Source: Sphingomonas sabuli (GTDB lineage: Bacteria > Pseudomonadota > Alphaproteobacteria > Sphingomonadales > Sphingomonadaceae). Taken from it: a DNA stretch of 64,000 bases. Where the stretch lies: NCBI RefSeq assembly GCF_014352855.1, contig NZ_CP060697.1, positions 930,001 through 994,000 on the forward strand. Direction: 5' to 3'. The notes under the pieces are model-generated. The model was not told the DNA's origin. It saw only the letters and a list, made by a program, of their open reading frames with translations, and searched no databases. The position numbers and the translations under genes were made by a program. Position 1 is the stretch's first letter, and each line of letters begins with the position of its first letter. This document shows, in pieces, positions 2,617 through 5,213 of this stretch.

Positions 2617-3452
2617 CTATCCTCCTCAACGTCGGCGAGGCCGCGGCGTTGCAGGTCGAGCAAATGGGCAAGCACCGACGCCCCCGCAGCGCCGCGCAGG
2701 CGAGGGTCGAGCCCGGGATAAGCGCCGGCGACGATTTCGGGAATGCCCTGCGGTTCGTCGCCGACCAGGCGCAGGATCTGCCGTTCGCGCTGCATCCTGT
2801 GTCCCATCAGGTGCCGGACATATTGGGCCGGGTTGGTCACGGCCGGCCCGTGCGCCGGATAATAGATGCGGTCGTCGCGGGCGCGCAGCTTGTCGAGGCT
2901 GGCCATATAGTCGGCCATGTCACCATCCGGCGGGATCACGACGGTCGTCGACCAGCCCATCACATGATCGCCGGTGAAAAGGGCGTCGCCCCACGCAAAA
3001 CACAGGTGATTGGAGGTATGGCCGGGCGTCGCCACCGCGGTGAGCGGCGAGCCGCCGATGTCGATGCTCTCACCGTCCGAAAGCACGCGGTCCGGTGCAT
3101 ATGCGCCGTCGAAGGCGGCATCGGCGCGCGGTCCCACCGTTTCCAGCGCAAGCGGTGCACAGCCGATGATCGGGGCGCCGGTCCGCTGCGCTAGCGGGCG
3201 GGCCGCGGGGCTATGGTCGCGATGGGTATGGGTGCAGACGATGGCCACGAGCTCGCGTTCGTCCACCGCCGCGACCAGCGCATCGACGTGCGCCGGTTCG
3301 TCCGGACCGGGGTCGATCACCGCGACGCGGTCCGTACCGACGATAAAGCTTTGCGTGCCGGTAAAGGTGAAGGCCGACGGATTGTGCGCCAGCAGCCGCG
3401 CAATCCCCGGCTCAAGCGCCTCGAGCCGGCCGTAGGGCGCGTCCTCGATCAG
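2598..3452 (-). CDS. MBL-fold metallo-hydrolase, LACTB2-like (probable CTG start)
   Basis: About 284 aa. The metallo-beta-lactamase core has THTHRDH (residues 74-80), GHTSNHL, TGDHVMG and a PAHGP histidine, giving the metal ligands of the glyoxalase II/LACTB2 group. The C-terminal ~70 residues form a winged-helix-like extension as in LACTB2, which can have endoribonuclease activity. The frame continues upstream into the glycosyltransferase gene, but homologous sequence begins at IEDAPYGRLE, where there is no ATG, GTG or TTG. A CTG at 3450-3452 overlaps the glycosyltransferase TGA as CTGA, the same geometry as the many ATGA/GTGA junctions here, so I place the start there. The next GTG lies inside the conserved first strand. 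Enzyme class is firm, substrate unknown. Confidence 0.8.
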   Translation of the reverse strand: MIEDAPYGRLEALEPGIARLLAHNPSAFTFTGTQSFIVGTDRVAVIDPGPDEPAHVDALVAAVDERELVAIVCTHTHRDHSPAARPLAQRTGAPIIGCAPLALETVGPRADAAFDGAYAPDRVLSDGESIDIGGSPLTAVATPGHTSNHLCFAWGDALFTGDHVMGWSTTVVIPPDGDMADYMASLDKLRARDDRIYYPAHGPAVTNPAQYVRHLMGHRMQRERQILRLVGDEPQGIPEIVAGAYPGLDPRLRGAAGASVLAHLLDLQRRGLADVEEDRWTATR

Positions 3453-4681
3453 GCCGCCGTACCCCGCGCGACCGAACCGCCGACGTTCGCCGGGGCGCTG
3501 GAATGACGTGCCGCGATGGCCTTGGGATAGACGTTGCGCAGCAGCCGCTCGAACGTGACGTCCCAGCCGAACAGGCCCTCGACGTGCTGCCGCGCCGCGG
3601 CGCCCATCGCCTGGCGGTTCGATTGCCACACCTCGAGTATGTTGGCCGCCATAGCGTCCGCATCGTCGACCGGGCCGAGACGCCCGGTTTCTTCGTCGAC
3701 GCGGTCGAGCATCGCCCCGGCCGCGACTCCGACGACCGGCAGGCCCGACGCCTGTGCCTCGATCACCGAAACGCCGAACGTCTCGTCGGCCATGGCGGAA
3801 ACGTACATGTCCGAACTGGCAAGCCAGCGGGCCAGTTCGGCCCGGTCCTTCAGGTAACCGGGCGCAATCACCCGCGGGTTGCCCGACGCGACGATCGAAT
3901 CCCGGACCGGGCCTTCGCCAAGCAGGACCAGCCGCGCGCCGAGCGCTTCCGGCAGCTTATTGAAAGCGTCAACCACCACTTGCGCCCGGCGTTCGCGATC
4001 GAGCCGGCCGAGATAGACCAGTAGCGGCTGGTCCGGCTCAACGCCAAGCTTGCGGCGCACGTCGGGATCGCGCTTGTCGGGAGTGAAGGCGTCCAGTTCG
4101 ACTCCCAGCGGCACGATCTCCACATTGCCGACGCCAAGCTCGCGCAGCTTATCGGCACCGCCCGCCTCGCTCAGCGCGTAGACTGCGTCGAATCGCCCGT
4201 AGAGCTTGCCGCAATACCAGTAGCAAAGCGCCTGCGCCTTGTTGGCGAGCCAATTGCCGAGCACGCGCCGGAACGGGCGTTGCACATAGGCCGTGGGAAA
4301 ATCGGTGAAATAACCCGCAACCGCCGCGACGTCGGGGTGCTGCCGGCGATAGCCGAGCACCGCCCACGGCAGGTTGTAGGCGTCCTGGCTTTCGATCACG
4401 TCAGGCTTGAAACGCTCCAGCGCCTCGCGGACCGCGCCGTTACGCAGCAACAGCCGATAGCGCGGGCTGGTGGGCACCTTGGGCGACCGGATGGTGACCG
4501 TGATGGTGCGCCCATCCTCTTCCACATGATCCTCGGCGCCGGGCACGATCAGCATGTGACGATGCGGCGTATTGGCCAGCAGGAAGTCGCGCTTGCGGCG
4601 CAAATAAGTCCCCACGCCGCCACCGACTTCGGACCAGCTTTGCGTGACGTCGCAGATCAGCAGGGGCGCTGCTGCACTCAC
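3449..4681 (-). CDS. Glycosyltransferase family 4 protein
   Basis: 410 aa, GTG start preceded by a weak GGAATAGG. Two Rossmann-like halves of the GT-B fold are visible: an N-terminal acceptor domain beginning with a glycine-rich loop (EVGGGVGTYLRR, ~residues 18-29) and a C-terminal donor domain with VYLGRLDRERR, LLGEGP and the EX7E-like region ADETFGVSVIEAQASGLPVV. This is the GT4 retaining architecture used for lipid or exopolysaccharide glycosylation. The acceptor and sugar cannot be read from the sequence. It is the first gene of the minus-strand operon ending in nadA; its stop overlaps the presumed CTG start of the MBL gene. No other polysaccharide genes are adjacent. Confidence 0.9.
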   Translation of the reverse strand: MSAAAPLLICDVTQSWSEVGGGVGTYLRRKRDFLLANTPHRHMLIVPGAEDHVEEDGRTITVTIRSPKVPTSPRYRLLLRNGAVREALERFKPDVIESQDAYNLPWAVLGYRRQHPDVAAVAGYFTDFPTAYVQRPFRRVLGNWLANKAQALCYWYCGKLYGRFDAVYALSEAGGADKLRELGVGNVEIVPLGVELDAFTPDKRDPDVRRKLGVEPDQPLLVYLGRLDRERRAQVVVDAFNKLPEALGARLVLLGEGPVRDSIVASGNPRVIAPGYLKDRAELARWLASSDMYVSAMADETFGVSVIEAQASGLPVVGVAAGAMLDRVDEETGRLGPVDDADAMAANILEVWQSNRQAMGAAARQHVEGLFGWDVTFERLLRNVYPKAIAARHSSAPANVGGSVARGTAA

Positions 4682-4783
4682 TGGCCTATTCCAGTGGCAA
4701 AGTGTCGGATTTGCTTACACGTGGCGGGCCCAGGCCGTTGCCCGGCTAAAAATATTTGGCGGAAATCTGCGATATTTTCCATT

Positions 4784-4799
4784 TGGCACGCGTATTGCT
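4784..4799 (+). promoter_or_regulatory. Sigma-54 (RpoN) -24/-12 type promoter
   Basis: TGGCACG-N4-TTGCT matches the RpoN consensus TGGCACG-N4-TTGCW at every core position with the correct GG/GC spacing. If C4798 is -12, transcription would start at about 4810-4811. No protein gene follows on this strand; instead a strong intrinsic terminator ends at 4884. An AAAATAT/ATATTTT inverted repeat lies just upstream (about 4749-4778). Whether RpoN and an enhancer-binding protein act here cannot be seen in this window. Confidence 0.65.
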
Positions 4800-4810
4800 T
4801 CAATGTAGCT

Positions 4811-4884
4811 GTCCACTTGGTTCCACAAACCACCAAAGGGGCGGTGTCGCGGTTTCTCTGGTCCCGCTGCACCGCCCTTTTTTG
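4811..4884 (+). ncRNA. Candidate sigma-54-dependent small RNA (~74 nt)
   Basis: The unit is bounded by the RpoN-type promoter at 4784-4799 and the hairpin/T6 terminator at 4839-4884. The only ATG near the predicted 5' end is followed at once by TAG, so it is not coding. The 5' half is mostly unstructured with a small GGTT/AACC hairpin and a CCACCAAAG tract; the 3' half is the terminator stem-loop with a pyrimidine-rich loop (TTTCTCTGGTC). It lies in the 211-nt gap between the GT4 gene and grxD, both on the opposite strand. I do not recognise it as a known RNA family. It is an inference from promoter plus terminator. Confidence 0.5.
4839..4884 (+). terminator. Strong intrinsic terminator, probably bidirectional
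   Basis: Stem GGGCGGTG (4839-4846) pairs with CACCGCCC (4870-4877). An inner GCGG/CCGC helix and an 11-nt loop sit inside it, followed by six T (4878-4883). Read on the minus strand the same stem lies just after the grxD stop (4893) and is followed by CTTTGG, so it may also end the bolA-grxD transcript. The T-run is much better on the plus strand, where no protein gene precedes it. Confidence 0.8.
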
Positions 4885-4892
4885 TTGTCCGG

Positions 4893-5213
4893 TTACGATG
4901 CGGCGGGCGCGCCGACCAATTGCTTGAGCTCGCCGCTTTCGAACATCTCCATCATGATGTCCGATCCGCCGACGAATTCACCCTTCACGTACAGCTGGGG
5001 AATGGTCGGCCAGTCGCTATATTCCTTCACGCCCTGGCGGATCTCGGGATCCTGAAGCACATCGACGGTTTTGAACTCCGCCCCAAGATGTTCGAGGATC
5101 GACACCGCGCGGCTCGAAAAGCCGCATTGCGGGAACAGCTCGGTCCCCTTCATGAACAGGACGATATCGTTTTCGTGGACGATCTGGTCGATCTGGTCCC
5201 TGGCGCTAGTCAC
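4893..5213 (-). CDS. grxD: Monothiol glutaredoxin Grx4 family (CGFS type)
   Basis: 106 aa. The active-site motif CGFSSRA (about residues 29-35) defines the monothiol CGFS class, which binds a glutathione-ligated [2Fe-2S] cluster and transfers it to BolA and to apo-proteins. A K-G preceding the CGFS and the [18 protein letters not shown] stretch form the usual glutathione-binding groove. Length is standard for a single-domain Grx4. Its start overlaps the bolA stop by 8 nt, so GrxD and its partner BolA are made together. The shared terminator at 4839-4884 follows directly. Cytoplasmic Fe-S trafficking role is established for the family. Confidence 0.96.

What the first reader, a model, noticed from the sequence alone, without database searches (positions are those of the whole stretch)
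4784..4884. Orphan sigma-54 promoter driving a ~74-nt terminated transcript: candidate novel sRNA
A full-consensus RpoN promoter (TGGCACG-N4-TTGCT) is followed after ~85 nt by a strong hairpin/T6 terminator on the same strand, with no coding frame between. Both flanking genes are on the other strand, so neither element has a protein gene to serve. RpoN-dependent regulatory RNAs are few, and none is known to me in this position in sphingomonads. It lies beside grxD-bolA and upstream of the GT4-nadA operon, which it could also affect through antisense or shared termination.
Basis: partly seen in the sequence, partly recalled or inferred. Interest (0 to 1): 0.75.

Follow-up and report, generated by a model that had tools for sequence, protein, structure and literature searches.

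The report
PrsR-driven small RNA beside grxD
A short stretch of bacterial DNA that looked like a promoter with no gene is very probably a conserved small-RNA gene, and its switch is the one known for exported, biofilm-associated surface proteins, a control circuit that we did not find linked to a regulatory RNA in the papers we could search.

Summary
A sigma-54 promoter (4784-4799) is followed by a ~73-nt RNA (about 4811-4883) ending in a strong terminator hairpin. A covariance model finds the RNA in 68 of 71 genomes of the genus (53 of 53 good ones). All 68 copies have the promoter at a near-fixed distance, the 5' end GUCCAC, the loop UCUGGUC and a convergent grxD. Its length, 3' end and spacing match 'motif 1', the predicted site of PrsR, activator of PEP-CTERM genes (Haft 2006). 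In my own 397-genome phylum scan the module preceded PEP-CTERM genes at 6 of 6 sites outside the family. Among the Sphingomonadaceae modules read, spacer 53-54 meant a PEP-CTERM-like gene in 16 of 16, and spacer 63-66 a hairpin RNA in 51 of 61, 35 of these convergent with grxD. The window's genome has rpoN, prsK and prsR but no detectable exosortase, so the PrsR-RNA branch persists without the system it was named for. Best reading: a PrsKR/sigma-54-activated, probably base-pairing sRNA. Transcription, PrsR binding and targets are untested.

The parts
4703..4719 (+). Enhancer-like site, 17 nt (TGTCGGATTTGCTTACA), matching 'motif 1' of PEP-CTERM promoters; predicted PrsR site
   Evidence: YGTCGN6YTKACR at a 63-66 bp spacer from the -24 element in 68 of 68 genus copies; same module before PEP-CTERM genes elsewhere; published motif 1 / mean spacer 62.8 / motif 2
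4757..4772 (+). Imperfect dyad TGGCGGAAATCTGCGA between enhancer and core promoter; function unknown
   Evidence: Moderately conserved columns in 63 distinct genus copies
4784..4799 (+). Sigma-54 -24/-12 promoter TGGCACG-N4-TTGCT
   Evidence: its first base lies 27 nt (64 copies) or 26 nt (4 copies) before the RNA's GUCCAC in the 68 genus copies
4811..4883 (+). Small RNA, about 73 nt; 5' end inferred from the -12 element
   Evidence: Model R1 hit G000:C1:934811-934885 (window 4811-4885), E 5.5e-14; covariation
4811..4816 (+). Unpaired 5' tail GUCCAC
   Evidence: 68 of 68
4818..4832 (+). 5' hairpin UGGUU-CCACA-AACCA; loop repeats the CCAC motif of the tail
   Evidence: Fold; helix 1 paired in 99.1% of cells, one pair with a change on both sides
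4835..4883 (+). Terminator hairpin with inner GCGG/CCGC helix, 11-nt loop UUUCUCUGGUC (4853-4863) and U6
   Evidence: loop UCUGGUC in 68 of 68
4893..5213 (-). grxD (glutaredoxin), convergent neighbour; syntenic marker, not part of the sRNA gene
   Evidence: Pfam PF00462; convergent downstream in 68 of 68 genus copies
3449..4681 (-). Family-4 glycosyltransferase gene, divergent neighbour
   Evidence: Pfam; divergent upstream in 56 of 68

Best explanation
The element is a small-RNA gene of the PrsK/PrsR two-component regulon. PrsR, presumably phosphorylated by PrsK, binds the 17-nt site at 4703-4719 and, by ATP-driven contact with RpoN-RNA polymerase at 4784-4799, switches on a ~73-nt RNA beginning GUCCAC at about 4811 and ending at its own terminator at about 4883. 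The RNA probably acts in trans by base pairing through its invariant unpaired segments (5' GUCCAC, first-hairpin loop UCCAC/CCACA, terminator loop UCUGGUC), with the tandem-domain Hfq encoded in the genome as likely partner. It would give PrsR, otherwise an activator of PEP-CTERM genes, a post-transcriptional output. Shown by sequence: conserved promoter, enhancer, RNA structure, and likeness of the whole promoter to PEP-CTERM promoters. Inferred: PrsR binding, transcription start, Hfq binding, base pairing. Targets unknown.
For: Model R1, built on the RNA alone, hits 68 of 71 genus genomes, 53 of 53 of those at least 90% complete and at most 5% contaminated. Of those 68 (24 of them training sequences of R1), 68 have the -24/-12 site at 26-27 nt, 68 the enhancer at spacer 63-66, 68 GUCCAC, 68 UCUGGUC. 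Structure: 93.8% of cells paired against 88.9 in shuffles, 12 pairs changed on both sides against 5.0, 0 of 500 shuffles reaching either. Published: motif 1 (17 nt, 3' TTTACA), mean spacer 62.8, sigma-54 motif 2, upstream of 99 of 167 proteobacterial PEP-CTERM genes. Own scan: strict module in 17 of 397 Pseudomonadota genomes, reversed control 0; all 6 sites outside Sphingomonadaceae precede genes with PEP-CTERM tails, judged by sequence. PrsK (TIGR02916) and PrsR (TIGR02915) over cut-off in the own genome; PrsR over cut-off in 10 of 10 genus relatives tested. A Desulfovibrio regulator predicted to control PEP-CTERM genes had its five predicted targets enriched in DAP-chip (PMC3333781, passages). 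Hfq with two Sm domains.
Against: No transcript data. The window's own site ends CTTACA, one letter from the published TTTACA; other genus copies end for example TTTACG or TTGACA. The logo of motif 1 was not readable, so its first 11 letters were matched only through my own PEP-CTERM hits. One of five covariation measures (further pair types, 20 against 19.6) does not exceed shuffles. No target was found; the one tested, grxD, was negative. RNAs of other genera share promoter, often place and sometimes the loop, but differ in sequence; the loop motif YUGGUYYC is in only 22 of 51 of them. Behind the hairpin of a few of them a long same-strand frame follows (L223, L226, L278, L280), in L278 a PEP-CTERM gene, so a leader role there is not excluded.
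Confidence: 0.82

Rival explanations
1. A real sigma-54 sRNA, but activated by another enhancer-binding protein of this genome: PspF, NtrX or an unclassified NtrC-like protein.
For: All three are present; two other sigma-54-like sites in the genome precede PspC-like proteins, so at least one other such regulon is likely.
Against: The enhancer matches the PEP-CTERM site in length, 3' end and spacing and precedes PEP-CTERM genes elsewhere. The enhancer pattern has no exact match in the two PspC-like loci L032 and L035.
Confidence: 0.07
2. The PrsR-driven RNA works by binding a protein (sponge or decoy), not by pairing with mRNAs.
For: Two CCAC motifs, one in the 5' tail and one in a hairpin loop; no target identified.
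Against: Terminator-type hairpin with U-tail and invariant unpaired loops is the usual form of base-pairing sRNAs (established knowledge).
Confidence: 0.2
3. The element acts in cis on its neighbours: terminator or antisense for grxD, or promoter interference with the glycosyltransferase gene.
For: grxD convergent in 68 of 68; the enhancer lies between the divergent glycosyltransferase start and the promoter.
Against: The RNA ends about 10 nt before the 3' end of grxD and is not antisense to its coding region. On the grxD strand the hairpin is followed by CCCCTTTGGTGG, no U-run. Own pairs are no more complementary to grxD starts than permuted pairs. In other genera grxD is absent from the stretch read in 14 of 51 rows and on the other side in 2.
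Confidence: 0.06
4. The transcript is the mRNA of a very short peptide.
For: Some PrsR modules elsewhere drive proteins of only 61-91 aa.
Against: No ATG in 57 of 63 distinct genus sequences; motif spacing in all three residues modulo 3; compensatory pairs.
Confidence: 0.02

Closest known systems
PrsK/PrsR-sigma-54 regulon of PEP-CTERM/exosortase systems (Haft et al. 2006, PMC1569441, passages)
   Same: 17-nt enhancer motif, about 63-nt spacer, -24/-12 promoter, prsK and prsR in the genome
   Different: The product is a structured RNA, not a PEP-CTERM protein; spacer class 63-66 instead of the 53-54 seen before most PEP-CTERM-like genes read in this family; no exosortase detected in the window's genome
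Sigma-54/two-component-driven sRNAs such as Vibrio Qrr (LuxO) and Pseudomonas CrcZ (CbrB) (recalled)
   Same: A response-regulator enhancer-binding protein switching on a terminated sRNA through RpoN
   Different: Other activator, other sequence and structure, one copy per genome; no target known
Desulfovibrio RR DVU0679 and its sRNA (PMC3333781, passages)
   Same: A response regulator whose target is an sRNA
   Different: Different regulator and locus; in that paper the regulator tied to PEP-CTERM genes is DVUA0057, and the passages I saw name no sRNA for it
Rfam ncS025 and STnc390
   Same: The only sub-threshold matches, 16.5 and 15.9 bits
   Different: Far below gathering scores of 46 and 50

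Membership tests
PrsR / PEP-CTERM-box promoter | 17-nt motif 1 ending TTTACA | tested here: met
   TGTCGGATTTGCTTACA at 4703-4719 (ends CTTACA, one letter off); YGTCGN6YTKACR in 68 of 68 genus copies. Only the 3' end and length of the published motif could be compared
PrsR / PEP-CTERM-box promoter | Spacer 32-92 nt (mean 62.8) to a sigma-54 -24/-12 site | tested here: met
   64 nt in the window; 63-66 in 68 of 68; published range
PrsR / PEP-CTERM-box promoter | prsK and prsR in the genome | tested here: met
   TIGR02916 (302 bits, cut-off 300, on a partial frame) and TIGR02915 (675.9, cut-off 502.6)
PrsR / PEP-CTERM-box promoter | Downstream gene encodes a PEP-CTERM protein | tested here: not met
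   Structured non-coding RNA
PrsR / PEP-CTERM-box promoter | Exosortase (PF09721) in the genome | tested here: not met
   Not detected at E <= 1e-5 in G000; not in 19 of 28 genus genomes searched, G000 included
PrsR / PEP-CTERM-box promoter | Binding by PrsR | not testable with these tools
   Needs gel shift or DAP-seq
Sigma-54-dependent trans-acting sRNA | RpoN promoter at the RNA's 5' end plus rpoN gene | tested here: met
Sigma-54-dependent trans-acting sRNA | Conserved structured RNA with intrinsic terminator | tested here: met
Sigma-54-dependent trans-acting sRNA | Expression as a discrete RNA | not testable with these tools
   No RNA-seq available
Sigma-54-dependent trans-acting sRNA | mRNA target by base pairing | tested here: inconclusive
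   Only grxD tested, negative
Any Rfam 15 family | Score at or above gathering threshold | tested here: not met

The most novel reading that the evidence does not exclude
In the genus of the window the PrsKR two-component system has been reduced to a dedicated switch for one small RNA: the RNA is its only recognisable target and both persist where the exosortase it was named for is gone. The RNA would then be the ancestral core output of PrsR in Sphingomonadaceae, controlling envelope or matrix functions after transcription.
Probability: 0.45. Interest if true: 0.8.

Novelty: new variant of a known kind. Interest (0 to 1): 0.66.

Why it matters
The signal and purpose of PrsK/PrsR are open questions. 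An RNA output found across much of a bacterial family, and kept where exosortase is not detected, offers a simple reporter for finding the PrsK signal and a way to find what PrsR controls besides PEP-CTERM proteins. It also adds an sRNA family absent from Rfam 15 to a bacterial family for which few sRNA papers turned up in my searches.

Tried and rejected
grxD as base-pairing target: the window's grxD carries GGGACCAGA, a 9-nt complement of the loop, but relatives do not share it (GGACCAG in 1 and GACCAGA in 2 of 63). Over 63 genus pairs the mean longest complement is 6.03 for own pairs and 5.99 for permuted ones, duplex energy -32.24 against -32.16. Rejected.

My first enhancer pattern (one position too long) found nothing in the genome, the loci or, exactly, the window and was corrected. 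The corrected motif alone is not specific: 57 matches with up to 2 mismatches in the window, 27 expected, 2 of them exact.

Weak model hits outside the genus: of 8 genomes, the 3 in genus g45 have promoter, enhancer and GUCCAC and are taken as homologues; the other 5 showed no such module in the 140 bases upstream and are taken as chance terminators.

Named-genome pattern scan: 39 loci; seven are not sphingomonads (Bradyrhizobium, Portibacter, Microbulbifer and others) and were treated as chance without checking each.

The RNAalifold consensus put a 5' helix with an impossibly short loop; I used a hand-drawn structure from single folds instead. Six of the 30 aligned copies were left out of model alignment A2: three that MAFFT misaligned, the window's own among them, and three near-duplicates; the model still finds them.

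In one search one of 85 loci (L219, spacer 44, before a small membrane-protein frame) fell outside the pattern and was dropped; L248 and L252 were set aside as chance matches. Classing the remaining modules as protein or RNA was by reading frames, tails and folds, then one systematic pass for PEP-CTERM-like tails over the 51 RNA rows, which turned up one, L278, behind the hairpin. The count 63 of 63 is partly by construction; searches give the count on model hits.

Genus-wide enhancer-plus-promoter pattern (41 genomes): I count 68 matches, 36 of them the sRNA site (one in each of 36 genomes; in the other five the sRNA site escaped the strict pattern, the model missed the RNA or the assembly was incomplete) and 32 others, against 11 for the reversed pattern. 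The 11 of the 32 for which I hold loci all lie inside open frames of 209-653 codons; the other 21 were not checked.

Full report
WHAT WAS CLAIMED. A full-consensus RpoN promoter at 4784 followed by a ~74-nt terminated transcript, with no gene to serve, as a novel sRNA.

CHECK. The sequence is as described. The promoter is the only exact match in the window, but hexamer counts are no better than chance (11 against 11.5 with up to 2 mismatches; genome 5 against 8 for the reversed pattern). The hairpin is strong. rpoN is encoded. Rfam has no match at threshold.

CONSERVATION. A blastn search with 4740-4900 hit 34 of 61 genomes: 33 of 37 of the window's genus, its own included, and one other at E 0.006. 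Thirty copies aligned show an invariant promoter core, an invariant GTCCAC and a terminator loop TCTGGTC. A covariance model of the RNA alone (R1, 24 sequences) hit 68 of 71 genus genomes; the three misses are assemblies 77-89% complete, and all 53 good assemblies hit. There is one copy per genome; the second hits in three genomes are the same hairpin on the opposite strand. In 397 genomes of the order it hit 37: 29 of the genus and 8 others with weaker scores. Named relatives include Sphingomicrobium lutaoense, S. nitratireducens and S. astaxanthinifaciens and several Sphingomonas species.

ANATOMY. In the 68 copies the -24/-12 site starts 27 (64) or 26 (4) nt before GUCCAC, so this motif is where sigma-54 transcription should begin (inference). 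All have loop UCUGGUC and a convergent grxD; 56 have the divergent glycosyltransferase. The RNA has a 5' single-stranded GUCCAC, a short hairpin whose loop shows UCCAC or CCACA, and a terminator hairpin. Pair counts on A2: 93.8% paired (shuffles 88.9), 12 pairs with changes on both sides against 5.0, covariation score 0.247 against 0.156, each reached by 0 of 500 shuffles; the number of further pair types, 20 against 19.6, is not above shuffles; slid controls reach at most 70.6% paired. The structure was drawn from these same sequences, which favours it over the slid controls.

THE ACTIVATOR SITE. Upstream of the promoter the strongest conserved block is a 17-nt one, mostly TGTCGGN5YTKACR, at 63-66 nt from the -24 site in 68 of 68; a weaker dyad lies nearer the promoter. 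The genome has four clear enhancer-binding proteins: PrsR (with PrsK beside it), PspF, NtrX and an unclassified one. Haft et al. 2006 (PMC1569441, passages read; the logo figure not seen) described upstream of PEP-CTERM genes a 17-nt motif 1 ending TTTACA, a spacer of 62.8 nt on average, and a sigma-54 motif 2, and predicted PrsR as its binder. Aquincola pepA is RpoN-dependent with such a promoter (PMC9850573, passages). In Desulfovibrio a regulator predicted to control PEP-CTERM genes had its five predicted targets enriched by DAP-chip (PMC3333781, passages).

INDEPENDENT TEST. I searched 397 Pseudomonadota genomes with TGTCGN7TTAC-N45-75-TGGCACRN5TGC: 18 sites in 17 genomes, none for the reversed pattern. 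The 6 sites outside Sphingomonadaceae all precede genes whose products end in a PEP-CTERM tail, judged by sequence. In 397 Sphingomonadaceae genomes a slightly looser module occurs in 283; the reversed pattern occurs in 6 as I count the listing. I read 85 loci from these two searches, a hand-picked part of the places listed. Inside the family, after one drop and two chance matches, 16 of 16 modules with spacer 53-54 precede PEP-CTERM-like genes (part of one, L241, also scores over cut-off to the cistern PEP-CTERM family NF033947). Of 61 rows with spacer 63-66, 10 precede PEP-CTERM-like proteins (two with degenerate tails) and 51 (50 loci) precede a GC-rich hairpin without an evident gene at the start. 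In 35 of those 51 grxD lies convergent downstream, as in the window; in 2 it lies on the other side and in 14 it is not in the stretch. A long same-strand frame follows behind the hairpin in at least L223, L226 (a GMP-synthase-like frame, by eye), L278 (a PEP-CTERM gene) and L280, so a leader role there is not excluded. The loop motif YUGGUYYC is in 22 of 51 (mono-nucleotide shuffles 0.8 on average, at most 5). So RNA, promoter and often position are shared across the family while the sequence drifts between genera. The 10-11 bp between the two spacer classes is about one helical turn (inference).

EXOSORTASE. PF09721 was found in 28 of 50 genomes searched: 9 of 28 of the genus, not the window's own, and 19 of 22 others. 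In the genus the open frames are 250-378 codons; in the others the best hit's frame exceeds 500 in 16 of 19. PrsR was confirmed by TIGR02915 in the own genome and 10 of 10 genus genomes tested, eight of which lack a detectable exosortase. The three non-genus genomes without exosortase (G109, G154, G189) also carry the module and an RNA. In 41 genus genomes the enhancer-plus-promoter pattern found the sRNA site in 36 and 32 other sites (reversed control 11); the 11 others whose loci I hold all lie inside long open frames. Hence the PrsR-sRNA link persists without an exosortase, and no second PrsR-type promoter was recognised in the genus; 21 sites remain unchecked.

MECHANISM. PrsK senses an unknown signal; PrsR binds 4703-4719 and activates sigma-54 polymerase; a ~73-nt RNA is made and ends at its terminator. 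Pairing through the exposed invariant motifs, helped by Hfq (two-domain form encoded), is the likeliest action but untested. grxD is not a supported target.

LITERATURE. Nine searches of the open-access library (listings only, except the passages named above) showed no paper linking PrsR, PEP-CTERM or exosortase to an sRNA of its regulon, or describing this RNA. Subscription journals are mostly not covered, and most listed papers were not opened.

VERDICT. A conserved sRNA gene by all sequence tests; regulator assigned with good confidence; expression and function open.

Noticed in passing
L237-L304, between enhancer and -24 site: Many non-genus PrsR modules, before both RNAs and PEP-CTERM genes, carry GTTAACCATCG at a roughly constant place; TTAACCAT resembles a CtrA half-site (recalled), suggesting a second input.
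   Followed up: no
window 4757-4772 and same place in genus relatives: Moderately conserved dyad GGCGGAAATCYGCC about 12-27 bp upstream of the -24 element.
   Followed up: partly
L032 and L035 (own genome, C1:191521 and C1:1690588, - strand): Two further sigma-54-like promoters precede small PspC-like membrane proteins, perhaps a PspF regulon; one scores to PspC (TIGR02978) below cut-off, the other to no NCBIfam family.
   Followed up: partly
L039 (own genome, next to ntrY-ntrX): Hfq is a tandem of two Sm domains in one 159-aa protein directly downstream of ntrX.
   Followed up: no
own genome and 23 genus relatives (capped list): No high-scoring NtrC-type gene is listed about 3.7 kb from ntrX in the genus, unlike G066, G067, G085, G106, G109 of the same family; NtrBC may have been lost.
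   Followed up: no
L281 (G912): Two PrsR-box RNA modules in tandem in front of grxD, apparently a duplicated RNA; two similar hits in G931 were not read.
   Followed up: partly
L278 (G867): Behind the hairpin RNA a PEP-CTERM gene starts within about 300 nt on the same strand, possibly a fusion of the RNA and protein branches of the regulon.
   Followed up: no
L277, L282, L291, L294: PrsR-box promoters in front of very short (61-91 aa) proteins with PEP-CTERM-like tails.
   Followed up: no
L040 (own genome, C1:362103): Unclassified 477-aa enhancer-binding protein with a degenerate receiver-like N-terminus; none of the 25 NCBIfam families shown (of 28) over cut-off.
   Followed up: no
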